Of a stretch of DNA of 64,000 bases, positions 2,767 through 61,572 are shown one piece after another. The DNA comes from CBDCVA01 sp965222935 [NCBI: Candidatus Latescibacterota bacterium]. Its GTDB lineage: Bacteria; Latescibacterota; CBDCVA01. A program made the position numbers and the translations under genes. The stretch's first letter is position 1. Each line of letters begins with the position of its first letter. The notes under the pieces were generated by a model. It saw nothing but the letters and a program-made list of their open reading frames with translations, searched no databases and was not told the origin of the DNA. Location: the NCBI GenBank assembly GCA_965222935.1, contig CBDCVA010000001.1, positions 434,001-498,000 on the forward strand, given 5' to 3'.

Positions 2767-4791
2767 GTGCCATCATCCGGTGGACGGCCCAAAGCCGCAT
2801 CCGCACTGCAGGCAAGCACCGCGGTTACACTTGCCGCTCTCGTCTTTGCCCTCATAGCGGCAGCCATCGCGGCGTCGAGCCCTGCTCGGACCTTCTGGAT
2901 CTGTGACGCGGGCAACAAGGCCATCCTGACGCAGAGCCTCTTGCACCACCGGTTCGCCAGCGCCCACTTGGACTACCCTGGCCGCGCGCATGACCCTACG
3001 CTCGTGCACTTTCCCATTGACTTGCCTTTCGCCTCGCGCGCGGGCGATCAATTCTACTCGCAGTACCCTATCGCCTTCGCCGCCATCGTCGCCCCCTGGT
3101 ACGCTCTTTTCGGCCCCAGAGGGTTCTACCTCGTGCCGCTTCTGGCGGCGACGGCCGCTGTGTGGCTCTTGGGCCGGTTCGCCATGCGCGCGTTCGGGTC
3201 TTGGTGGGCGGCCGTGGTGGCGCTCACGGCGGGCCTCGCTACACCGCTAGTCTTCTACGCAGTGACCTTCTGGGAGCACTCGGTCACCGTGGCGCTGGCT
3301 CTTGGGGCGTTGCTCCTATCGGCTGGTGCCCCCAACAGCCCGACACCTGGCGGTCGGCGGCTGGTCCTGGCGGGTGCCCTGGTAGGCTTGGCGTGCTGGT
3401 TCCGGCAGGAGTTGATTCTGGTGGCCTTCGCCCTGGCGGGCGGGCAGTTGTGGGCGGGCCGGTCGAAGCGCGCAGCATCGATGCTCGTCGTCGGCACCCT
3501 GGCGGCGTTATTGCCGCTGTGGATCTGGAATTCCATCACAAGTGGCCATCCGCTGGGCTTCCACGTCCAGAACAACCTGGCTCCCGCGGCAGAGCGCTGG
3601 CAGGGGACGGGTCTGGGACTGGCCTGGATGCTCGTGAGCGAGCGATTGGTGGTGGCCTACGCGCTCGGGGTGGCTTCGACGCGGGAGATTCCCCTCGGTC
3701 TGGTGCGAGCGCTGCCGATCCTAGCGGTGGTCGCTTCGGCGCTCGTGCCCGAGCGACGCCAGGGGTGGCGCATGGGCCTCGTGGCCGGTGGGGCGTTCAT
3801 CGGCGTCGTGAGCTGGGCCGTTGGGACCCGCGAAGCCCTGGCTTCACCGGGACCCATTCGCCAGACAGGATGGTCGAACGGGCTGCTGCACAAAGTGCCT
3901 CTGGTAGCGCTGGCAGGCCTGGGCGTCCGCGCGCTAACGAGTGGACCGAAAGCGGACACCTGGCGCGTAGCGGCCGCAGGCGCGCTGGGATTCATCGGCG
4001 CCGCCACCCTGTTCGCGCCGCGTCCGATGGTCCTGGGTTTTCACTGGGGGCCAAGGCTCTACCTGCCCGCGATACCTGTGCTGGCCGTCTTCGCATGGGC
4101 AGGTGCTGCGCATCTGGCTCGTGGAGCACCCGCACGATGGCGCTGGATCCCTTGGACCACTCTCGTGGTTCTCGCGGTCCTCTCGGGAGCATCTCAGGCG
4201 CATGGCCTGTGGCTGCTCCACCACAAGAAACAAGCTTCGGAGCGCGTTGCGCAGGCCCTCGAGGCGGCTCCGGAGACGGCGGTCGTCACAACCTCGTGGT
4301 TCCTCCCGCAGGAGATGGCGAGCCTCTATTACAGCAAAGCGTTCCTTCTCGCCACGCGGCAGGACGGTCTTGAAGAGATGATGCTCAATCTCCACGCGGG
4401 CGGCGTACACCGCTTCCTGCTCGCCACTCACCTCGCCAGGCCGTTGGGCGAACGGCTGGGGCCGCTTCGGCTCGAGCTGCGCGAGTCGGTCCGCTCGCAG
4501 CCGGTGCGCTACATGGATTTCGACATCGTGACGTGCGAGTTCCTCGACGAAGCTGATGTGGCCGCGGCGCACGAACTGAGCGGTGCCTACTTGCGCGTCG
4601 GGGAGCGGTATCTGGCGGCCGGCCGGCCTGCGCTCGGTGCCGAGCGGCTTCGAGCTGCAGTGGTCATTGATCCGCACCTGGGTCGTGCCTATGCGCTGCT
4701 GGCGCGGGCGTACACGGTGCTGGGACGCCTTGCGGACGCTGCGTGGGCGGAGGAGCAAGCGCGCGAACTGGGTGCGCTGCCCTCACCGTGA
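2767..4791 (+). CDS. Polytopic membrane glycosyltransferase-like protein with C-terminal TPR
   Basis: 674 aa, GTG start behind a GGGAGG. About ten hydrophobic segments span residues ~15-490. An acidic CDAGNKAI segment near residue 48 lies in the first extracytoplasmic loop, as in GT39/PMT-type and related GT-C enzymes that use lipid-linked sugars. Residues ~500-590 form a soluble domain, and ~595-670 hold two TPR-like helix pairs (LSGAYLRVGERYLAAGRPAL and LLARAYTVLGRLADAAWAEE). The GT-C assignment is from topology and the acidic loop only; no specific family is certain. It stands alone between the DUF502 cluster and the ffh operon. Acceptor and donor are unknown. Confidence 0.6.
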   Translation: MPSSGGRPKAASALQASTAVTLAALVFALIAAAIAASSPARTFWICDAGNKAILTQSLLHHRFASAHLDYPGRAHDPTLVHFPIDLPFASRAGDQFYSQYPIAFAAIVAPWYALFGPRGFYLVPLLAATAAVWLLGRFAMRAFGSWWAAVVALTAGLATPLVFYAVTFWEHSVTVALALGALLLSAGAPNSPTPGGRRLVLAGALVGLACWFRQELILVAFALAGGQLWAGRSKRAASMLVVGTLAALLPLWIWNSITSGHPLGFHVQNNLAPAAERWQGTGLGLAWMLVSERLVVAYALGVASTREIPLGLVRALPILAVVASALVPERRQGWRMGLVAGGAFIGVVSWAVGTREALASPGPIRQTGWSNGLLHKVPLVALAGLGVRALTSGPKADTWRVAAAGALGFIGAATLFAPRPMVLGFHWGPRLYLPAIPVLAVFAWAGAAHLARGAPARWRWIPWTTLVVLAVLSGASQAHGLWLLHHKKQASERVAQALEAAPETAVVTTSWFLPQEMASLYYSKAFLLATRQDGLEEMMLNLHAGGVHRFLLATHLARPLGERLGPLRLELRESVRSQPVRYMDFDIVTCEFLDEADVAAAHELSGAYLRVGERYLAAGRPALGAERLRAAVVIDPHLGRAYALLARAYTVLGRLADAAWAEEQARELGALPSP

Positions 4792-4855
4792 ACGCGTTGG
4801 CCGTTTTCAAACCGCCAACGGAAACCCGTGCCATCCTGCGCCCTCCGAACGTGTT

Positions 4856-8448: not shown

Positions 8449-9255
8449 ATGACGCCGGAACGGTTGCTGGAACTCTTGCGCGCCGTCCAGAATGGGGAGA
8501 TGAACCCCGAGACGGCGCTTGAGACTCTGCGGTATCTGCCATTCGAGGACCTGGGTTTCGCGCGGGTGGATCATCACCGCAGCCTGCGCCAAGGCTTCCC
8601 CGAGGTCGTCTTCTGTGAGGGCAAAACGACCGAACAGGTCGTGGCCATTACCGAGCGGCTGATCGCGCACGGCGCGCCGGTCCTGGCGACGCGAGTGGCC
8701 CCCAGCGTGGCTGAAGCCCTCCTCGAAGCGCACCCCGAGGCCCAGCACAACCCGACGGCCCGTACAGTCGTCATCGATCCACGGCCTGACGGGGAACGCT
8801 CACCCGCTTCCGGGGGCCTGGTGCTCGTCATTACGGCGGGCACTTCGGACATGCCCGTCGCCGAGGAGGCTTGCGTGACGGTAGAGATCATGGGCGCACG
8901 CGCCGACCGCCTCCACGATGTGGGCGTCAGCGGCATTCACCGCCTTCTGGCGCATACCGACCGGCTGGCGGCCGCGGATGTGCTCATCGTTGTCGCCGGA
9001 ATGGAGGGCGCTCTGCCAAGTGTGGTCGGCGGGCTCGTCTCGGCGCCTGTGATCGCTGTGCCCACCAGCGTCGGTTACGGCGCGAACCTGGGGGGATTGA
9101 CGGCGCTTCTGGCCATGCTCAATAGCTGCGCCATGGGCGTGGTGGTCGTCAACATCGACAACGGCTTCGGGGCGGGCTGCGCGGCTGCGCTGATCGCCCG
9201 CAGAGTGGCACTTCGTGCGGTCACGCCACAGGAGGCGTCCGCGTCGCAAAGATGA
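8449..9255 (+). CDS. larB: Nickel-pincer cofactor biosynthesis protein LarB
   Basis: 268 aa. LarB carboxylates and hydrolyses nicotinic acid adenine dinucleotide to give the precursor of the (SCS)Ni pincer cofactor. The N-terminal helical part carries FEDLGFARVDHHRSLRQGFP and VVFCEGKT. The C-terminal PurE-like AIR carboxylase domain shows LVITAGTSDMPVAEEA, VVAGMEGALPSVVGGL and SVGYGANLGGLTALLAMLNS. Length is typical. larC follows after a 174-nt gap with palindromic repeats. Neither larE nor a LarA-type racemase is in this window. Confidence 0.95.
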   Translation: MTPERLLELLRAVQNGEMNPETALETLRYLPFEDLGFARVDHHRSLRQGFPEVVFCEGKTTEQVVAITERLIAHGAPVLATRVAPSVAEALLEAHPEAQHNPTARTVVIDPRPDGERSPASGGLVLVITAGTSDMPVAEEACVTVEIMGARADRLHDVGVSGIHRLLAHTDRLAAADVLIVVAGMEGALPSVVGGLVSAPVIAVPTSVGYGANLGGLTALLAMLNSCAMGVVVVNIDNGFGAGCAAALIARRVALRAVTPQEASASQR

Positions 9256-9271
9256 GTCCGGCGAGCAACGG

Positions 9272-9374
9272 TCCTGAGCTTGTCGAAGGATCAAAGGTGT
9301 CCCTCTCTCCGCTATGTTGGGAGAGGGGTGGAGGAGAGGGGTTCTTTTCTCCCCTCCCTGCTCGCGGGGAGGGG
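9272..9374. repeat. Intergenic palindromic repeat cluster between larB and larC
   Basis: Three parts are visible. TCCTGAGCTTGTCGAAGG at 9272-9289 is a dispersed motif that recurs with two differences at 12307-12324. A hairpin of CCCTCTCTCC against GGGAGAGGG lies at about 9301-9328. CCCCTCCCTGCTCGCGGGGAGGGG at 9351-9374 resembles the repeat at 4856. These look like small REP-type elements in intergenic DNA, not promoters. Confidence 0.6.
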
Positions 9375-9429
9375 CCGGGGTAGGGTGAGCCTGCTTGCGG
9401 GGAAAGGTCAGGCGTGAGGTGAACCCACG

Positions 9430-10611
9430 ATGAAGCTGGCCTACTTTCAGTGCATCTCGGGTATCTCCGGGGACATGGCGCTGGGAGCCCTGGTGGACGC
9501 CGGGCTGCCGCTCGAGGCGCTCGAAGCGGAACTCGCCAAGCTTCGCGTCCCGGGCTTCGCATTGCGTGCGACGAAAGTGCGGCGGGGTGCATTGACCGCC
9601 ACCCAGGTGGAAGTTTTAACCGATGGTGGCGATCACGCCCACCGCCACCTGGCGGACGTGCTGGCGATCATCGACGCAGCCGACCTTGCGCCGAGGGTCG
9701 CCGAACGCGCGAGCGCCGTCTTCCGGCGGCTGGCCGAGGCGGAAGCAGAAGTGCATAACACAACGTCCGGCAAGGTGCACTTCCATGAGGTCGGGGCCAT
9801 TGATGCGATCGTGGACGTCGTGGGCGCCGTCGTCGGCTTGGATCTTTTGGGCGTCGAGCACGTCTACAGCTCCCCCCTGCGCTTTGGCACAGGCCAGACG
9901 ATCTCCGAGCACGGCACGATCCCCATCCCCGCGCCGGCCACGCTCCTTTTGACGCGCGGTGTCCCTGCAGTCCGGACGACGGTACCCTTCGAGCTCGTCA
10001 CCCCCACGGGCGCAGCGATCATCACGGCTCTCGCCGAGAGCTTTGGGCCGTCACCTGTCTTCGCCGCTACCGCTGCGGGCTACGGCGCCGGTAGCCGCGA
10101 CATCCGCGAACTGCCGAACGTCCTGCGCCTTGAGCTGGGCGAAGCGGCTGACCCCGACGAGGCGGATCACTCGACCATCATAGAAACCAACGTTGACGAT
10201 ATGAGCCCCGAAGTGGCCGGCTATGTGGTGGATCGCCTGCTCGCGGGGGGGGCCAAGGACGCGTTCCTGATCCCCGTCATCATGAAAAAGGGGCGCCCCG
10301 GGGTGCTCTTGACGGTCCTGACCGACCGAGATCACCTCGACGGGATGGTCGAGACTGTCTTCGAGGAGACCACGACCTTGGGCGTGCGCATTTACGACGT
10401 GGACCGTCGCAAGGTGCGGCGGCGCTTCGGAATTGCCCGAAGCGACCTCGGTCCGATCAAGGTCAAGATTGGCGAGTTTGGCGGGCGGACTCGCGTCGCG
10501 CCCGAGTACGAGGACTGTGCGCGCATCGCGCGCCAGACGGGTCGCCCGATCCTCGACGTCTACGATGTGGCGCGCAGTTCGCCCATCGAACCGACACCGG
10601 AGGAAGGTTAA
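9430..10611 (+). CDS. larC: Nickel-pincer cofactor metallo-insertase LarC
   Basis: 393 aa in one uninterrupted frame. LarC inserts nickel into the dithiolated pincer using CTP. The N-terminus has YFQCISGISGDMALGALVDA; a histidine-rich DGGDHAHRHLADVLAIID loop near residue 65 is the likely metal-handling segment; GKVHFHEVGAIDAIVD, FELVTPTGAAI and ETNVDDMSPEVAGYV are family signatures. The C-terminal half contains the MKKGRPGVLLTVL and TTTLGVRIYDVDRRKVRR segments of the CTP-binding LarC2 domain. In Lactobacillus plantarum the two parts are joined by programmed frameshifting; here they are fused. Confidence 0.95.
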   Translation: MKLAYFQCISGISGDMALGALVDAGLPLEALEAELAKLRVPGFALRATKVRRGALTATQVEVLTDGGDHAHRHLADVLAIIDAADLAPRVAERASAVFRRLAEAEAEVHNTTSGKVHFHEVGAIDAIVDVVGAVVGLDLLGVEHVYSSPLRFGTGQTISEHGTIPIPAPATLLLTRGVPAVRTTVPFELVTPTGAAIITALAESFGPSPVFAATAAGYGAGSRDIRELPNVLRLELGEAADPDEADHSTIIETNVDDMSPEVAGYVVDRLLAGGAKDAFLIPVIMKKGRPGVLLTVLTDRDHLDGMVETVFEETTTLGVRIYDVDRRKVRRRFGIARSDLGPIKVKIGEFGGRTRVAPEYEDCARIARQTGRPILDVYDVARSSPIEPTPEEG

Positions 10612-13698: not shown

Positions 13699-13727
13699 TT
13701 GACTCGACGCACGGCGTGTCGTATATT
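13699..13727 (+). promoter_or_regulatory. Transposase promoter starting inside the left inverted repeat
   Basis: TTGACT (13699-13704) lies inside the terminal repeat; a 17-nt spacer leads to TATATT (13722-13727). The transposase ATG is 25 nt further on with GGAG. The second transposon has exactly the same geometry. Confidence 0.75.
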
Positions 13728-13751
13728 GGAGCTAACGAAAGGAGACCCGCC

Positions 13752-14705
13752 ATGTGCAAAGTCACCATCAGCCTGCTTCAACTGTTCGAGCGCTTCCCCG
13801 ACCAAGATACCGCCCGCGCCTACATGGAGCAACGGCGCTGGCCGGACGGCGCCTGGTGTCCGCACTGCGGCGAGACATCGCGCATCGGGGCATACAAGGA
13901 CGGGTACTATCGGTGCAACGTCTGTATGCAGACGTTCACGGTGCGCACCAAGACGGTCATGCAGCGATCTCACATCCCGCTCCACAAGTGGCTCTACGGT
14001 ATGTATCTGCTCGTGACGGCCCGCAAGGGCATATCGTCTGTGCAACTGTCAAAGGAGCTTGGCATCTCGCAGCCCTCGGCCTGGTTCATGCTACAGCGCT
14101 TGCGGATGGCCTGCAAGGACGACGAGGGGCCTCTGTCCGGCATCGTCGAGATCGACGAGACCTTCGTGGGCGGGGCGGAAGCCAACAGGCACAAGAGCAA
14201 GCGCCTAGGCCTGGGCCGGGGCACCGCCGGTAAGCAAGCCGTGATCGGAATGCGCCAGCGCGGCGCCGGAAGCTCCGGGGGCACCGGAAGCTCCGGTGGC
14301 AGCCGCGTCGTAGCGGTCACCATCCCCGACACCTCTACGCAGAGCGTCGAAGGCCCGATTGACTTTCACGTCGATCCGGGCGCCACCCTGTACACTGACG
14401 AGCACAGCGCTTACCGCCACCTCAAGGCCCGGTTCAAGGCCCATGAGACGGTGCGGCACGGCCAGGAGGAGTTCAAGCGGGGCGAGGTTCACACCAACAG
14501 CATCGAGGCCGCCTGGGCCGTTCTCAAGCGCGGTCTATACGGTGTCTATCACCACGTGAGCATCAAGCACCTGGACCGCTACCTCGACGAGTTCACCTTC
14601 CGGCTGAACCAGGGGGCCTGCGAACACCACACGATGGCCCGCATCGACGCGATGCTGTCCGGGGCCGTTGGGCGCCGCATCACCTACGCAGACTTGACGG
14701 CGTGA
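13752..14705 (+). CDS. IS1595-family transposase (ISXO2-like DDE/N)
   Basis: 317 aa. The N-terminal helical domain starts MCKVTISLLQLFERFPDQDT. A zinc ribbon follows (CPHC at ~36 and CNVC at ~57), then a helix-turn-helix (LSKELGISQPSAWFMLQRLR). The catalytic core has IVEIDETFVGG (first Asp), TLYTDEHSAY (second Asp) and VHTNSIEAAWAVLKRGLYGV, the ISXO2-type third block. ATG at 13752 has an AAAGGAG upstream. A Gly/Ser-rich run (GAGSSGGTGSSGGS) between the first two catalytic blocks is absent from the second transposase here, although the first ~140 residues are nearly the same. It should be active. Confidence 0.95.
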   Translation: MCKVTISLLQLFERFPDQDTARAYMEQRRWPDGAWCPHCGETSRIGAYKDGYYRCNVCMQTFTVRTKTVMQRSHIPLHKWLYGMYLLVTARKGISSVQLSKELGISQPSAWFMLQRLRMACKDDEGPLSGIVEIDETFVGGAEANRHKSKRLGLGRGTAGKQAVIGMRQRGAGSSGGTGSSGGSRVVAVTIPDTSTQSVEGPIDFHVDPGATLYTDEHSAYRHLKARFKAHETVRHGQEEFKRGEVHTNSIEAAWAVLKRGLYGVYHHVSIKHLDRYLDEFTFRLNQGACEHHTMARIDAMLSGAVGRRITYADLTA

Positions 14706-30407: not shown

Positions 30408-31304
30408 TCAAGTTCCAACACCTTCCGTCAATGCCGCATACGTGAGACGCCTGCCTACTCCCCCGGACAACATGGACGCTATCCGGTCCATCGTGTGTCT
30501 CTCTACTCTACCTTGATTGAGCCGGAAGGTAAACTCGCTCACGTATAGGTCTAGGTGCTTGAAGCTGGCGTGATGGTAGACGCCTCTCAACCCGCGTTTC
30601 AATACGGCCCATACGCTTTCGATGCTGTTCGTATATACTTCGCCTCTGGCCCATTCCTCTACGCTATGCTTCACAGTCTCGTGCCGATCCCTCAGCCCTA
30701 TATACGATCTGTGCTCGTCCGTATAGATGATTGCCTTAGAGTCTACGAAGTGATCGACAACGCGCCGCACTTCGTATCTACTCGTTCTCCTGATGGGCAC
30801 TGCCTTAACGTCTCCTCCGCGCTCCCTCATTCCTAATACGGGCTGCTTGCCAACTGGCCCCCTTCCTATATTGTGCCTCTTGCCGCCTACATAGGTTTCG
30901 TCGATCTCCACGATCCCCGACAGAGGCCCGCTAGTGTCCTTGCAAGCTTCCCGAAGTCGCTGTAACATGAACCATGCTGACTTTTGCGTGATCCCGAGCT
31001 CCTTGGAAAGCTGGAGAGACGATATGCCCTTGCGGGCCGTCACGAGCAGATACATCCCATAAATCCACTTGTGGAGAGGGATATGGGAGCGCTCCATGAC
31101 GGTCCTGGTGCGGACGGTAAAGACTGCCATGCAGGCGTTGCACTGATAGTAACCGCCCTTGCGAGATCCGATCCTCTTCGGCTCTCCGCAGTGTGGGCAC
31201 CATACGCCATTAGGCCAGCGCTGGCGCTCCATATAGCACCGGGCGGTGTCTTGATCGGGGAACCGCTCGAAGAGCTGGAGCAGACTGATAGTGACTTGGC
31301 ACAT
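30408..31304 (-). CDS. IS1595-family transposase, Tn-B
   Basis: 298 aa, ATG at 31304 with AGGAGG. It starts MCQVTISLLQLFERFPDQDT and is very close to the Tn-A transposase over the first ~140 residues. Zinc ribbon CPHC/CNAC; helix-turn-helix LSKELGITQKSAWFMLQRLR; catalytic IVEIDETYVGG, IYTDEHRSY and VYTNSIESVWAVLKRGLRGV. It lacks the Gly/Ser insertion of the Tn-A enzyme. All catalytic blocks are intact and the gene faces into the element. Confidence 0.95.
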   Translation of the reverse strand: MCQVTISLLQLFERFPDQDTARCYMERQRWPNGVWCPHCGEPKRIGSRKGGYYQCNACMAVFTVRTRTVMERSHIPLHKWIYGMYLLVTARKGISSLQLSKELGITQKSAWFMLQRLREACKDTSGPLSGIVEIDETYVGGKRHNIGRGPVGKQPVLGMRERGGDVKAVPIRRTSRYEVRRVVDHFVDSKAIIYTDEHRSYIGLRDRHETVKHSVEEWARGEVYTNSIESVWAVLKRGLRGVYHHASFKHLDLYVSEFTFRLNQGRVERHTMDRIASMLSGGVGRRLTYAALTEGVGT

Positions 31305-31341
31305 GGGACCCTCCTGAAACGTGCCTATCTCTAATAAATAC

Positions 31342-31370
31342 AATATAATAGGCATATAATCCGAAGTCAA
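31342..31370 (-). promoter_or_regulatory. Transposase promoter starting inside the right inverted repeat
   Basis: On the minus strand TTGACT (31370-31365) lies in the terminal repeat, followed by a 17-nt spacer and TATATT (31347-31342): the same layout as in Tn-A. Confidence 0.75.
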
Positions 31371-31516: not shown

Positions 31517-33802
31517 TCAGCGCAGCAATAGCAGCTTGCGTGTTTCTACCTGCGCTCCGGCCTGCAGGCGGTACAGGTACACCCCGCTGGCCAGCTCGTG
31601 CTCCTGATCATCTCTCCCGTCCCAACGCACCTTGAAGGTACCGGCTTCCCGCACGCCATTCACCAGGGTCGCCACCTGCTGCCCGGCTAGGTTATAGACG
31701 GCCAGTTCGATGTTTTCGCTTTGGGAAAGGGCAAAGCGGATGACCGTACCGCTGTTGAAGGGGTTAGGCACGTTCTGCAGCAGCACTAGCTGCGTAGGCA
31801 CAACGCCTTGGCTCAGCACGTAGGCTGTGCCTTTCCACACCACGATCATGTCCTGCCTAAGCAGGGCAAACGCGTTCAGCTCTGCCGGTTGGCCCGACGT
31901 CGAATCGTACTTCACTACCGGCATGCCCACCTCGAACTCTAGGTCGATCCACGTCTCGTCGCGCAAATAGAACGATTTGCCATGCCACGAGGCGGTGATC
32001 ATCGTTTCTTCCACCGCTGTCGCATTTATCTCAGACTCTCTCGGCTCTGGATTGACGATCACGTCATCGTCCGGCGCAAACAGCGACGTCCGCCGGGTCA
32101 CCAGCCGATAGGTGAGCCCCAGGTCCAAAATATCGTCCAGCACCTCCCGCTGGGGACCAAAACGCGCGATATGTCCCTCCAGTGCCTGTACCTTCTGGTG
32201 CGCCCAGAGCCGCGGAATGAGCGGCTGGTCCGTGTCCTCCGCCGCAAATTCCAGCGGATATTCCAGCGACAGGACCTGGTCCTCCGCTCGGCCCTCTAGT
32301 TTGAGTGTGAACGGTCCGCCGCTCAGATAGCGTCCGACTTGGAACAGCTCCTGCCCCGAAACCAGTAGGTCGACTCCGATGGGAAACACATCGTGCACCT
32401 CCATGCCTTCAAAAGACAGCTTGGTGGGCAGGAAGATCGGCCGCGTAAACTCTTCAAACAGCGTCCGAAGCTCCGTCTCGATATCGCCCTCCGTCGATAC
32501 AAAGCGGCTCGAGCCGCTATGGTCTTCGGCCAGGGCGCGCAGAAAGCTCCTGTTCACGTCATTGCCCACCCCGATGGCGAAAATGCGCACCACGTTTCTG
32601 GCCAGCTCCTCCACCATCTGGCTCAAGGCCGCCAGATTTGTCTCACCCTCCGAGGGATAGCCGTCGGTAAGGAAAATGACGTGGTTGGTACGCCCCTCGG
32701 GAAAGGTCTGGCGCAAGGCCTGCCTCAAGGCCGCCTCGAAATTGGTTGCCCCCAGCGCCGTCAACCGCTGTACAAAGTCTACGGCCGCCTCTTTGTTTGC
32801 CGCGGTAGCTTCCACAGGATCGGAGGCGAAGGGCTCGGCGCGGTTACTGAAGGCGATGATGTTGAAGAAATCGTCGGCCTGCAGGGCTCCTATGGCACTG
32901 GTGAGGGCCCTTTTGACCGGAGGTAACTTGGTGTCCCGCATGCTGGAGGAGACATCGATGACAAACGTAATGCTGCGCGGAATGGGATCGGACTGGGGCA
33001 GTTCAAGCGGCGGCAGCCACAGCGCGTAATAGCCCAGCTCCTCGCCGGGGGACTTGTAGCTTAGCACTCTAGGTAGACGCTGCTCCCCGGTCTCGGTGAT
33101 CACGAGTTCGAAGTCGCGTTCGGCGGTCACCAGCTCGTCGGCGAAGAGCACCTTGGTGGCCAATTCGTGCTCCTGCTCAATGGCCGTGATCTGCTGGAAA
33201 AGGCCCTCCGTTCGCACCGTGAAGGGGTGCTGTCCAAGCACGTGGGCGCGCAGTACGAAGCTTTGCATCAACACTGGCTGCGCCGTCTCGGCCGCCAGCG
33301 GAAACCGGTAGTGCATTGTCCCGGCGAGTCCGTCCAGGACCTGCGTGTACTCCAGCTCCACCCGCCGGCTGCCCTGCGCCGGGAAGGGAAAAATGCTTAG
33401 GCGAAAGCGCGCTTCGTCGATCTGCTCGATCAGGGCCGGGTCAATGTTCCGCCCGACGATCTCGTCGTAAATACGCCGCGCCTCCTCCTTCTCCATGATG
33501 ATCCCCTGCACTCGCTTCTCGCCGATCCACAGCACCAGATCCGTGATGATGGCCCCCGAGGGCAGAGCGAATTCATAGATGCCCTCCACCTGCCAGTCGA
33601 AATGACTGGTGAACACCTGATCGGTGCGAGTCACGGCCACCCGATCCTGGATGGTCACCTCCACGTTGACCGAAGTCAGTTCCAGCAGTTCACGGTCGTC
33701 CCCGCCAACGCCGGTGTACACATAACCGATGGCTCCGGCCTGTAGCGGCCAGCAAAGGACCAGAAGCCAGCTGGCAACCTGTCGCTTCATCAGTTTTTTC
33801 AT
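31517..33802 (-). CDS. Secreted VIT/von Willebrand A domain protein with FlgD-like sorting tail
   Basis: 761 aa from the ATG at 33802. A signal peptide (WLLVLCWPLQAGA) leads into a VIT domain (residues ~25-160; SVNVEVTIQDRVAVTRTDQV, YEFALPSGAIITDL). The VWA domain follows near 265-440 with the MIDAS motif FVIDVSSSM and a FLTDGYPSEGE segment. The last ~90 residues are a FlgD Ig-like / type A sorting domain (VPNPFNSGTVIRFALSQSEN ... GVYLYRLQAGA ... RKLLLLR), typical of FCB bacteria, where it marks export and surface attachment. Inter-alpha-trypsin-inhibitor-like; the ligand is unknown. Monocistronic, with a strong terminator hairpin. Confidence 0.88.
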   Translation of the reverse strand: MKKLMKRQVASWLLVLCWPLQAGAIGYVYTGVGGDDRELLELTSVNVEVTIQDRVAVTRTDQVFTSHFDWQVEGIYEFALPSGAIITDLVLWIGEKRVQGIIMEKEEARRIYDEIVGRNIDPALIEQIDEARFRLSIFPFPAQGSRRVELEYTQVLDGLAGTMHYRFPLAAETAQPVLMQSFVLRAHVLGQHPFTVRTEGLFQQITAIEQEHELATKVLFADELVTAERDFELVITETGEQRLPRVLSYKSPGEELGYYALWLPPLELPQSDPIPRSITFVIDVSSSMRDTKLPPVKRALTSAIGALQADDFFNIIAFSNRAEPFASDPVEATAANKEAAVDFVQRLTALGATNFEAALRQALRQTFPEGRTNHVIFLTDGYPSEGETNLAALSQMVEELARNVVRIFAIGVGNDVNRSFLRALAEDHSGSSRFVSTEGDIETELRTLFEEFTRPIFLPTKLSFEGMEVHDVFPIGVDLLVSGQELFQVGRYLSGGPFTLKLEGRAEDQVLSLEYPLEFAAEDTDQPLIPRLWAHQKVQALEGHIARFGPQREVLDDILDLGLTYRLVTRRTSLFAPDDDVIVNPEPRESEINATAVEETMITASWHGKSFYLRDETWIDLEFEVGMPVVKYDSTSGQPAELNAFALLRQDMIVVWKGTAYVLSQGVVPTQLVLLQNVPNPFNSGTVIRFALSQSENIELAVYNLAGQQVATLVNGVREAGTFKVRWDGRDDQEHELASGVYLYRLQAGAQVETRKLLLLR

Positions 33803-34202
33803 TTTGGTGCTTCCCCTCATGGACACAAGCAAACAGCAGCACTATCTAACACATTCCACGTTACAACCCTCCATCATTCACGTTCCCCGATAGTCCCCAT
33901 CCGCGTCTTCTTCATGCAACTCTCCCTTGAAGCTCTCCCGCTGTGCCCGTCGCTGCCTATCACAGTCTAATATATGCCGCGACTGCCTCCGGGCCAGTGT
34001 AAAATCCCTTTCCAAGCTCGGCACGAGTTGACAGCGGGCGGGGCGACGACTATTCTGCCCGCGCGCCAAGGGCTTCGGCCCCGAAGGCGGCAATGAAGGA
34101 GCTAGAGGGACCCTGCGAACGCGGCTCGCCGGAATTTGTCGTAAGCCAGAGCTTATCGTATCATATTTTCCACGGAGAACTTGAGGAGGAGAGCGAATAC
34201 TC
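33803..34202. other. Intergenic region upstream of two divergent genes
   Basis: No convincing gene. TTGACA (34028-34033) and TATTCT (34051-34056) with a 17-nt spacer could drive the 3-hydroxyacyl-CoA dehydrogenases, but an inverted repeat GCGGGC/GCCCGC overlaps the same stretch. GAGGAGG lies 14 nt before the ATG at 34203. Confidence 0.35.
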
Positions 34203-42356: not shown

Positions 42357-43403
42357 ATGAAACGCGTTGGGAACATGCTGGTTGTGACGTTTCTGGCGCT
42401 TGCGGCTGGTGCGGTCGCCTTCGCTGCGGGGCCCCGCCCGGGCAACCCGATCCGCACGGTCCTGCCGCGCGATGGGATCCCCGCTCTCTTCAAACCGCGG
42501 TTTGTCCTCGCTGAAGAGGTACGGATCGCCGATGGCGCTCACGTCATCGGAATCTCCATCGGTGGCGAGAGCCGCGCGTATTCGATCAATCTCCTGGATA
42601 ACCACGAGATCTTCAACGACGTAGTAGGGGGCCGGCCGATCGCCGTCACGTGGTGACCGCTGTGCGCTTCGGCTGTCGTGTACAGCCGCGAGTTGGATGG
42701 GGATGTGCTGGAGTTCGGCGTCTCGGGCAAGCTCTGGCAGAACGCGCTTTTGATGTATGATGGCAAGACGGCTTCGCTCTGGTCGCAGATCACGGGCGAG
42801 GCGGTGGGGGGCGAGATGAAGGGCAAGAAGCTGCGGTGGGTTGCGGGCATACCGCGCGTGACCTGGGGCGAATGGCGTAAACAGCATCCCCGCACGGTGA
42901 TACTCGTGGATGACCGGGGTCGGGCGGACCAGCGGTCGCCGTACGAAAGCTACTTCACGTCGAACGATGTCGGCATCTTCGACGGTCCCATCCGGCACGA
43001 TAGGCGGCTCAAGAATAAGGAGAAGGTTATCGGGGTGCAGGTGGGCCGAGCGGCAAGGGCATATCCGCACAGCGCCTTCTCCGACGGTCGAACGCTCGTG
43101 ACCGATGTTCTGGAGGGAATCCCGATCGTCGTGTTCCACGATCCCCAGACCCATGCCTCTGCGGCGTATGCGGCCATCATAGGGGATAGGACGCTCACCT
43201 TCCCGGATGGCGCCCAGGGCGGTCGAGCTGCCGACGATGAAACGGGCACGGTCTGGAATCTGTTGACCGGAGAGGCTGAGCGCGGCCCGCTCACGGACGA
43301 AAGGCTCGATCCCGTGCGCTTCATGGAGCTTTACTGGTTCGCGTGGGCGGATTTCCACCCCGAGACCGACGTTTACGTACCTGACGAGGAGAAACGATGG
43401 TAA
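42357..43403 (+). CDS. DUF3179 protein read through TGA: candidate selenoprotein (Sec100)
   Basis: 348 codons with one in-frame TGA at 42654-42656 (codon 100). A signal peptide (MLVVTFLALAAGAVAFAA region) precedes a DUF3179 domain. Before the TGA: SRAYSINLLDNHEIFNDVVG, GRPIAVTW; after it, PLCASAVVYSRELDGDVLEF and KTASLWSQITGEAV continue the family pattern without any shift. In DUF3179 the motif at this site is CPLC or CPLT after Thr-Tyr/Trp, so the TGA replaces the first Cys. This gives UPLC, a UxxC redox motif. The alternative is a nonsense mutation in a single gene. No Sec-machinery gene is in the window. Predicted exported. Confidence 0.75.
42670..42688 (+). promoter_or_regulatory. Candidate bacterial SECIS hairpin
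   Basis: CGGCTGT (42670-42676) pairs perfectly with ACAGCCG (42682-42688) around the 5-nt loop CGTGT. The stem starts 13 nt and the loop 20 nt after the TGA, inside the usual bacterial SECIS distance range, and the loop contains the GU expected for SelB contact. A lower CTT/GAG extension with one bulge is possible. Confidence 0.55.
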
Positions 43404-60378: not shown

Positions 60379-61572
60379 ATGCTGAAGGACGAACTGGCAA
60401 ACGGGGTTGAAATCTATCAAGTCACCCAGGGGAACGCATTGGTGTCGAACCTCTACTGTGAACGTCCGTACAGTTCCCTTGACTCCAGGCGTTTCTTATA
60501 CGCGAGGCAGCGCGACGATGCCGGGTCGCACGGCCGGCAACACGGGGACCTGGGCCCCGCCGCTTATCGGAAGGCGCCTCAGGAACCGGGCCAAGATCGC
60601 CTTTGTCCGTGGGAGTACGTGCTGTGCGAATTCGGCACGTGGGAAGAGGAGGTCGTCGGAGCGGGATTTCTGCAGGTCAGCGTCAGCTACGGGGATGATT
60701 TCTACTTCCAGCGTCCGGAGGCGAAAGGTCAACTGGAGCTTGTCCGCCTGGATATGGCGACGGGTGTCCTGGAGCCGGTTTGGTCCTGCTCGTCCGACAC
60801 GGGCTACGTCGGGCATCCTACGGTATCCACGGACCGAAAGTGGCTGGCCTATCACTATGCCCTGTCCTATAGCCCGCAACGATTTGGCGTGGCGCTTGTG
60901 GATCTGCAAACGGGCGAGCGGAATGTCATCTATGAGCATCCGCATCTGTGCAACGCTCATCTTCAGTTTCATCCCACCGACAACCGCACGTTGCTGGTGC
61001 AGTTGAACCGGGGCTGTGAATACACGTCCGACGGCGAACGCCTCAAGTTGGTCGGAGATGAGGGCGCGACCCTCTTGCTCCTGGACGCCATCTCTGGAGA
61101 GGTGGAACCTCTGCTGATCGGCAAGCCGTATACGCCTCCGATTACCGGTCACGAAGCATGGCTGGGCACAAGCCGTGAGGTAGTCGCCACTGTCATAGCA
61201 GAGGGCGAGTATGTCGCGGCGCCCACGAAGGGATCGGTGGTTGTGATAGCCGAGGGGACCCCATGCCGCCAACTCGGGACGGGCATCGAATTAATCCACA
61301 TTGGATCGACGCCCGGCGGCCAGTACATCTATGGTGATTGCATCGCCGAGGACTACATTACCATTGTTTCACCTGTCACGGGCAAGACCGTCACGGTCCA
61401 CCGCGATCCGGAGCAGCCCGGGGACTCGCCGTACGACCAGCAAAGCCACCCCCACGCCTATCTGACGCCGGATTTCAACTGGATGGTGTTTAACTCCGAC
61501 TGCACAGGGCGGCCCCAGGTTTATGCGGCTCGAATTCCCTCGGAGCTCCTAGCGGAGGTGGATAACAGTTGA
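60379..61572 (+). CDS. Oligogalacturonate lyase-like (PL22) beta-propeller
   Basis: 397 aa, GGAGGG ahead of ATG at 60379. Propeller with YQVTQGNALVSNLYCERPYS near the start, GYVGHPTVSTDRKWLAYHYA, EHPHLCNAHLQFHPTDNRTL, PPITGHEAWLGTSREVVATV and QQSHPHAYLTPDFNWMVFNS; the repeated histidines (HPTVS, NAHLQFHP, GHEAW, HPHAYL) match the Mn/catalytic His layout of PL22 enzymes. These split oligogalacturonides to unsaturated monomers. No signal peptide, as expected for cytoplasmic PL22. It agrees with a pectin-type pathway in this island. Confidence 0.75.
   Translation: MLKDELANGVEIYQVTQGNALVSNLYCERPYSSLDSRRFLYARQRDDAGSHGRQHGDLGPAAYRKAPQEPGQDRLCPWEYVLCEFGTWEEEVVGAGFLQVSVSYGDDFYFQRPEAKGQLELVRLDMATGVLEPVWSCSSDTGYVGHPTVSTDRKWLAYHYALSYSPQRFGVALVDLQTGERNVIYEHPHLCNAHLQFHPTDNRTLLVQLNRGCEYTSDGERLKLVGDEGATLLLLDAISGEVEPLLIGKPYTPPITGHEAWLGTSREVVATVIAEGEYVAAPTKGSVVVIAEGTPCRQLGTGIELIHIGSTPGGQYIYGDCIAEDYITIVSPVTGKTVTVHRDPEQPGDSPYDQQSHPHAYLTPDFNWMVFNSDCTGRPQVYAARIPSELLAEVDNS

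What the first reader, a model, noticed from the sequence alone, without database searches (positions are those of the whole stretch)
42357..43403. Candidate UxxC selenoprotein: DUF3179 protein with in-frame TGA at the CPLC cysteine
Seen: one TGA (42654-42656) splits an otherwise continuous DUF3179 frame; TW-TGA-PLCASAVVYSR aligns with the family CPLC motif at its first Cys, with no shift. A 7-bp hairpin (42670-42688) with loop CGTGT starts 13 nt downstream. Known: bacterial Sec insertion uses UGA plus a nearby SECIS hairpin, usually at redox UxxC sites. Inference: codon 100 is selenocysteine.
Basis: partly seen in the sequence, partly recalled or inferred. Interest (0 to 1): 0.9.

Follow-up and report, generated by a model that had tools for sequence, protein, structure and literature searches.

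The report
Selenocysteine-containing DUF3179 redox protein
The gene very probably reads its in-frame UGA codon as selenocysteine in a probably exported protein of a family already listed as a selenoprotein family, so this is a well-supported new member of a known kind rather than a new one.

Summary
An intact DUF3179 frame (42357-43403; PF11376, E 2.7e-81) holds one TGA (42654-42656) at the family's first CPLC cysteine. A 7-bp, 5-nt-loop hairpin (42670-42688) starts 13 nt later.

Selenocysteine is supported well beyond the window. In 199 Acidobacteriota genomes, 42 DUF3179 places carry one TGA and none TAA or TAG; 41 aligned over the codon and hold it there. In 29 TGA sequences the hairpin is 92% paired and all seven pairs covary; 2 of 147 Cys homologues reach 6 of its 7 pairs. 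A covariance model built without the window finds the window site at E 2.3e-8; the next hit has 0.13. selB is in 31 of 32 genomes with TGA-DUF3179. The window groups mostly with Sec forms (13 of 14 rows), with moderate support.

It is not new in kind: two reviews list DUF3179 as a selenoprotein family, UxxC/T. Untested: the host's own Sec genes, as no genome is held. Additions: a second hairpin layout, frequent loss of the +3 cysteine in Sec forms, an internal duplication, and a possible Rieske-like fold (weak).

The parts
42357..43403 (+). DUF3179 gene, read through one UGA; 348 residues with Sec100, followed by stop TAA
   Evidence: GGAGG upstream of the ATG (sequence printed); the N-terminus looks like a signal peptide by eye only
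42654..42656 (+). in-frame TGA, proposed Sec codon 100 (UPLC motif)
   Evidence: aligned with the first Cys of CPLC; TGA in 43 of the 190 unique sequences that bear Cys or TGA there, window included
42663..42665 (+). TGC, Cys103, the only cysteine codon of the protein; partner of Sec in UxxC
   Evidence: translation has U100 and C103 only
42670..42688 (+). SECIS-like hairpin: stem CGGCTGT / ACAGCCG, loop CGTGT, 13 nt after the TGA (20 nt from TGA to loop)
42531..42908 (+). N-terminal repeat of the protein (bears UPLC)
   Evidence: internal duplication: BLASTP 28% identity, E 4e-13; HHalign E 4.9e-31
43017..43400 (+). C-terminal repeat; DPQT in place of UPLC
   Evidence: structure model

Best explanation
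The gene encodes a probably exported DUF3179 selenoprotein. When the ribosome reaches UGA 42654-42656, SelB carrying Sec-tRNA(Sec) binds the hairpin just downstream and Sec is inserted at residue 100, the first position of the family's CPLC redox motif (UPLC). Shown here: the codon position, the covarying hairpin at fixed spacing, and Sec genes in genomes of TGA-bearing relatives. Inferred: Sec insertion in this organism, export (signal peptide seen by eye), and a thiol/selenol redox reaction in which Sec100 attacks and Cys103 resolves.
For: TGA aligned to an invariant Cys with the domain intact on both sides. Stop choice: 42 places with one TGA and none with TAA/TAG in 199 Acidobacteriota genomes. 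Hairpin with 6-7 pairs at +13 nt in 25 of 43 TGA sequences against 2 of 147 Cys sequences, 0 of 39 acidobacterial Cys ones. All 7 pairs with double changes, covariation 0.515 against 0.180 shuffled, 0 of 500 as high. 22 of 29 perfect stems against a mean of 1.7 and a maximum of 6 under synonymous recoding; Cys homologues show no excess, 3.12 against 3.03 pairs. The model built from 28 other sequences scores the window site 44.4 bits, E 2.3e-8, next 14.8 bits; the best hit in 73 Cys loci is 25.9 bits. Fits the bSECIS limits printed in PMC13188914. selB in 31 of 32 TGA-DUF3179 genomes against 102 of 167 others, p 2e-5. tRNA-Sec at 58 bits or more in 30 of those 32 against 95 of 167 others (hand count). 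The window groups with 12 other Sec rows and 1 Cys row (support 89; 75 in a second tree). TGA is an ordinary stop elsewhere: 26 of 40 main window ORFs, chosen by hand, end in TGA.
Against: No genome is held for the window. The 64 kb show no selB (two SelB queries), no Rfam tRNA-Sec and no sel gene among 30 of the 40 main ORFs scanned with NCBIfam; so the host's capacity is untested. The single-sequence fold is not special (z 0.27), and a 44-nt piece prefers another fold (-13.8 against -9.8 kcal/mol). The closest relative is only 43% identical, so no near neighbour shows the TGA or hairpin conserved. 4 of 43 TGA sequences fit neither layout at 6 of 7 pairs, although the two HR10 genes among them show bulged versions by eye. 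One TGA genome, G103, shows no selB, perhaps because the genome is incomplete or because only six candidates a genome were scored. The tree support is moderate: a 61-row tree put the window in a 17-row all-Sec set at 96, but that sample lacked the Cys row L099; with L099 and three more Cys rows added (65 rows) no strongly supported set holds the window. The redox function is by analogy only.
Confidence: 0.92

Rival explanations
1. Sequencing or assembly error, or a recent nonsense mutation: the true codon is TGC/TGT or the gene is a pseudogene.
For: A one-base change from TGC or TGT gives TGA; the window is a single unreplicated sequence with no held genome; most homologues of other phyla have Cys here (88 of 89 loci).
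Against: The window site scores 44.4 bits with a SECIS model built without it; an error in a Cys gene would not bring the Sec-type hairpin, which 2 of 147 Cys genes have. The window groups mostly with Sec forms. The rest of the frame is intact, and the invariant residues after the TGA are kept.
Confidence: 0.05
2. TGA is read as another residue, by a variant code or by suppression/readthrough with Trp, without Sec.
For: The residue before is Trp and the frame stays open after the TGA.
Against: 26 of 40 main window ORFs end in TGA, so TGA is a stop here; the aligned column is Cys, not Trp; the covarying hairpin goes with TGA.
Confidence: 0.02
3. Two separate genes: a 99-residue exported peptide ending at the TGA and a 241-residue protein restarting at GTG 42678.
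For: the ORF listing gives both.
Against: One DUF3179 domain spans the TGA (profile 1-292 of 292); the same split would have to occur at the same codon in 41 acidobacterial genes.
Confidence: 0.01

Closest known systems
DUF3179 domain-containing selenoprotein family (PF11376, UxxC/T), listed as predicted in PMC9312934 Table 1 and PMC13188914 Table 1; the latter credits Zhang and Gladyshev 2007
   Same: Same domain, Sec at the first position of the CxxC motif, UxxC form.
   Different: Another, unnamed lineage; closest sequence found 43% identical. The reviews give UxxC/T; the acidobacterial set here also shows UxxA (8) and single UxxS, UxxV, UxxK and UxxE.
Bacterial SECIS element, bSECIS model as printed in PMC13188914 (Fig. 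2 legend)
   Different: The window itself does not differ. A second layout in another DUF3179 clade (stem 8 nt after UGA, loop GGUCU) lies at the short edge of the printed 16-37 nt: 15 nt to the loop, or 16 if the closing G-U pair is counted.
Rieske [2Fe-2S] domain
   Same: The best-ranked PDB fold matches of the model, and nearly all rows shown, are Rieske-type: Foldseek prob 1.00, E 5.4e-3 at best; VIA Z 8.5, rmsd 2.9, 93 residues.
   Different: No CxH/CxxH cluster ligands are possible: the protein has one Cys plus Sec. No match at Foldseek E 0.001 or better; the profile link is weak and for one half only.

Membership tests
DUF3179 (PF11376) | profile match over the curated cut-off, full length | tested here: met
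   273.7 bits against a cut-off of 27, profile 1-292 of 292
Bacterial selenoprotein | in-frame UGA at a position that is Cys in homologues | tested here: met
Bacterial selenoprotein | SECIS hairpin just downstream, within the printed bSECIS limits and supported by covariation | tested here: met
Bacterial selenoprotein | selA, selB, selC, selD in the same genome | not testable with these tools
   no genome held; none seen in the part of the 64 kb that was tested; in relatives selB is in 31 of 32
Bacterial selenoprotein | selenium in the purified protein | not testable with these tools
   needs the bench
Rieske [2Fe-2S] protein | two Cys and two His ligands in CxH and CxxH boxes (motif recalled) | tested here: not met
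   translation has only Sec100 and Cys103
Rieske fold (without the cluster) | clear structural and profile similarity | tested here: inconclusive
   top fold rows are Rieske-type at Z 8.5 or less; HHalign: C half prob 51, score 28.0 against at most 16.2 in 60 column shuffles; N half prob 2, score 16.9, below the shuffle maximum of 21.8

The most novel reading that the evidence does not exclude
DUF3179 may be a selenoprotein family outside the thioredoxin fold: two tandem Rieske-like domains that have lost the iron-sulphur cluster and carry a Cys-x-x-Cys or Sec-x-x-Cys centre in the first repeat only. Once Sec is present the +3 cysteine becomes dispensable, hence UxxA, UxxT and others, which points to a chemistry that does not need a local resolving thiol. 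The family would then be a natural series (CxxC, UxxC, Uxx-other) for studying what Sec buys, with two SECIS layouts in one family.
Probability: 0.3. Interest if true: 0.6.

Novelty: new member of a known kind. Interest (0 to 1): 0.4.

Why it matters
It shows that an apparent nonsense codon in an unnamed lineage is very probably a genuine Sec codon. It also turns a one-line entry in selenoprotein tables into a family with many Sec members in Acidobacteriota (42 places in 199 genomes), a covarying SECIS and repeated Sec/Cys changes (8 on the tree drawn, of which well-supported branches force 4). I found no stated function for DUF3179; the Sec forms mark residue 100 as the likely reactive residue, and the forms without the second Cys make a direct test of the mechanism possible. 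A plain ORF finder cuts this protein into two pieces.

Tried and rejected

Placing the window: LigA of the window matched 22 of 29 genomes of many phyla, the full-length matches at 41-49% identity, so its phylum stays undetermined. FlgD-like and dockerin domains would suit the FCB group or Latescibacterota, but that is recalled, not tested. megablast of the region against plasmids gave nothing.

Single-sequence folding as proof of SECIS was dropped: z 0.27, and 21% of synonymous recodings hold some 7-bp stem in the region.

A 17-row all-Sec clade around the window (support 96) was withdrawn on checking: the random sample had left out the Cys row L099, which falls inside the group. With L099 and three further Cys rows in (65 rows), the group is 13 Sec and 1 Cys at support 75, and no strongly supported set holds the window.

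Loss of the +3 Cys as a correlate of Sec: raw counts are striking (18 of 41 Sec against 2 of 39 Cys in Acidobacteriota; overall 18 of 43 against 2 of 147), but on the tree only 4 independent pairs lie on starred branches and the sign test cannot reach significance. I keep it as a pattern, not a test passed.

Rieske membership was rejected (no ligands). HHalign with the N half was no better than column shuffles; only the C half stood out. The sequence search of PDB found nothing credible (best E 0.66).

I also scanned the window for other TGA codons in open frames followed by a hairpin: 3 of 39 such TGAs, this one and two in other frames with no family evidence. In that call one of the three SelB queries (from L090) was a wrong frame, so the selB check of the window rests on two.

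Rows dropped before counts: 9 of the 204 rows that reach the column but bear neither Cys nor TGA (recount: Ser, Gly, Asn or His forms, second repeats, a misalignment); duplicates; 25 of 229 rows that do not reach the column, the TGA place L147 not being among the counted rows; the 14 TGA rows assigned to the second layout; in the trees, short rows, all but a random 40 of the non-acidobacterial Cys rows, and also three long-branch Sec rows and all but small samples of the Cys rows.

Full report
What is there. The + strand frame 42357-43403 starts with ATG after a GGAGG and is open to a TAA, except for one TGA at 42654-42656, codon 100. With that codon read as a residue the protein has 348 residues and a full-length DUF3179 domain (PF11376, E 2.7e-81, profile 1-292 of 292, residues 38-337). 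NCBIfam gave no family at E up to 1. By eye the first 25 residues look like a signal peptide; no tool was run for that.

Position of the TGA. In an alignment with eight plasmid-borne homologues the TGA falls on an invariant Cys. In the 89 loci first fetched (8 plasmid, 1 viral-contig, 80 genome), 88 have Cys there and one has TGA: L035, bacterium HR10, in the same W-UGA-PLC context. A family search of 199 genomes of HR10's phylum found DUF3179 in 63 genomes; by my count of the list 42 places in 32 genomes have exactly one TGA inside and none has TAA or TAG. That phylum is Acidobacteriota: the phylum draw centred on G015, which holds a Chloracidobacterium locus (L048), gives the same genome handles. 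The TGA places and the other places were fetched, but for one below the cut-off and a few fragments. Over all loci there are 43 unique TGA sequences including the window and 147 unique Cys sequences at this column; 41 of the TGA ones are acidobacterial. Chloroflexota and Gemmatimonadota samples also hold places with one TGA (11 and 12, against one with TAG and one with TAA, counted); there the position of the TGA was checked only in L013.

The hairpin. The same 7-bp stem with a 5-nt loop, starting exactly 13 nt after the TGA, has 6 or 7 pairs in 25 of 43 TGA sequences and in 2 of 147 Cys sequences, 0 of 39 acidobacterial Cys ones. A second layout, stem 8 nt after the TGA with loop GGTCT in most, occurs in another clade; 15 of 43 TGA and 6 of 147 Cys sequences reach 6 pairs at that place, and 14 TGA sequences were assigned to it. 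For the 29 TGA sequences not assigned to the second layout, MAFFT gave an ungapped alignment. The stem forms in 92.1% of cells, all seven pairs have changes on both sides, and the covariation score is 0.515 against 0.180 (sd 0.026) in shuffles, 0 of 500 as high; sliding the partner by 1-3 columns drops pairing to 44.3% or less. RNAalifold, left free, predicts this stem and nothing else. Because the region also codes for protein, I recoded each sequence synonymously: 22 of 29 real sequences have perfect stems, against a mean of 1.7 and a maximum of 6 in 500 recodings, while Cys genes show no excess (3.12 against 3.03 pairs). The set of 29 was defined partly by the absence of the other layout, which slightly favours the stem; the four misfits were kept in.

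A test that leaves the window out. A covariance model built from the other 28 sequences finds the window's TGA site at 44.4 bits, E 2.3e-8 in 64 kb, with the next hit at 14.8 bits and E 0.13; its E-values are rough. In 73 Cys-bearing loci (a part of those held) its best hit is 25.9 bits. The model carries protein-coding letters as well as pairs, so part of the score is the conserved motif. The window's stem is identical to those of L134 and L135. The hairpin also meets the bacterial SECIS limits printed in the Fig. 2 legend of PMC13188914, passages seen: loop of 5 nt, stem 7 bp, G in the first two loop positions, 20 nt from UGA to loop, -9.8 kcal/mol. Under those limits, 36 of 43 TGA and 23 of 147 Cys sequences have some hairpin. 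The second layout sits at the short edge: 15 nt to a 5-nt loop, or 16 nt when the closing G-U pair is counted. Against: alone, the window's fold is ordinary (z 0.27), and a 44-nt piece has a competing fold.

Sec machinery. selB over its cut-off is in 31 of the 32 genomes with TGA-DUF3179 (all but G103), in 23 of 31 genomes with DUF3179 but no TGA form, and in 133 of 199 overall (Fisher p 2e-5 against all others, 0.013 against the 31). tRNA-Sec at 58 bits or more is in 30 of the 32 (all but G028 and G049) against 95 of 167 others, by hand count; weaker hits there may be other tRNAs. HR10 itself has both. Genome completeness is not given for these genomes. In the window no selB was found with two SelB queries, no tRNA-Sec, and no sel gene in 30 of 40 main ORFs; no genome is held for it, so the host itself is untested.

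Kinship. In a 119-row tree the Sec/Cys label needs 8 changes (4 forced by well-supported branches), and the window falls among 13 Sec and 1 Cys rows, itself included, at support 89. A 61-row tree gave a 17-row all-Sec set at 96, but its sample lacked that one Cys row, L099; with it and three more Cys rows added (65 rows) the same 14 rows group at 75 and no strongly supported set holds the window. The trees thus agree with a Sec neighbourhood, with moderate support. The nearest sequence is 42-43% identical (L102, UPLA), so the window belongs to a lineage not sampled here. TGA is an ordinary stop in this window: it ends 26 of 40 main ORFs.

What the protein may do. The AlphaFold2 model is confident (pLDDT 90.7, pTM 0.87). 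The protein is an internal duplication: the two halves are 28% identical (E 4e-13; profile E 4.9e-31). UPLC lies in the first repeat, between two strands; the second repeat has DPQT at the equivalent place. The best-ranked PDB matches, and nearly all rows shown, are Rieske-type domains, on both halves, but with no Foldseek E at or below 0.001 and Z of at most 8.5; the tool's note puts a best Z of 7 to 8 as typical of models without a clear match. A profile built from 27 Rieske domains matches the C half at probability 51 and score 28.0 against at most 16.2 in 60 column shuffles, and does not match the N half. The cluster ligands cannot be present. The likely role is a thiol/selenol redox reaction outside the cytoplasm, by analogy with other UxxC proteins. 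In Sec forms the +3 residue is not Cys in 18 of 43, in Cys forms in 2 of 147; this fits a reactive residue at position 100, but shared ancestry explains part of it and the tree-based test lacks power.

What is known. Two reviews list DUF3179 as a predicted selenoprotein family with motif UxxC/T (PMC9312934, table passage; PMC13188914, table passage), and the second credits Zhang and Gladyshev 2007 (entry in its reference list; that paper not read). NCBI gives the name 'DUF3179 domain-containing (seleno)protein' to haloarchaeal genes; the two that I aligned carry Cys. Three papers in the library mention DUF3179 at all. A search for selenoprotein with Acidobacteriota gave ten papers (listing); of these I looked into one, deep-Sep (PMC12013277), by term search, and its main text does not mention DUF3179. 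I saw no account of the covarying hairpin, the second layout or the duplication in what I searched, which is far from all literature; the 2007 paper in particular may hold parts of it.

Verdict.

Noticed in passing
L035:1953-3023 and 3785-4840: Bacterium HR10 has two DUF3179 genes in tandem, each with one TGA at the same codon (UPVC; UPLC); a thioredoxin-like and a MerR-like frame lie upstream (named by eye).
   Followed up: partly
L115, L116, L118, L120-L124, L126-L131: Second SECIS layout in a TYU-x-LCHTG clade: stem CCACACC/GGTGTGG, loop GGTCT (variants in L116, L127, L131), 15 nt from UGA to loop or 16 with the closing G-U pair, the short edge of the printed range.
   Followed up: partly
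L167, L169, L170, L173, L174, L176: Acidobacterial DUF3179 relatives with Ser, Gly, Asn or His at the first Cys of the motif, probably without the redox centre.
   Followed up: no
Gemmatimonadota sample, e.g. G498, G402, G500: A low-scoring group of DUF3179-like places with one TGA each, possibly a divergent Sec subfamily; TGA position not checked.
   Followed up: no
window 60510-60600: ARAGORN calls a 91-nt tRNA-Ile that Rfam does not support and that lies inside a 405-aa ORF on the other strand; probably false.
   Followed up: partly
window 13716-14705 and 30408-31370: Two IS1595-type transposase genes.
   Followed up: no
window 31517-33832: Protein with VIT and VWA domains and a FlgD-like C-terminal tail, weakly similar to type IX sorting tails.
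   Followed up: no
window 8449-10611: LarB and LarC of nickel pincer cofactor synthesis side by side.
   Followed up: no
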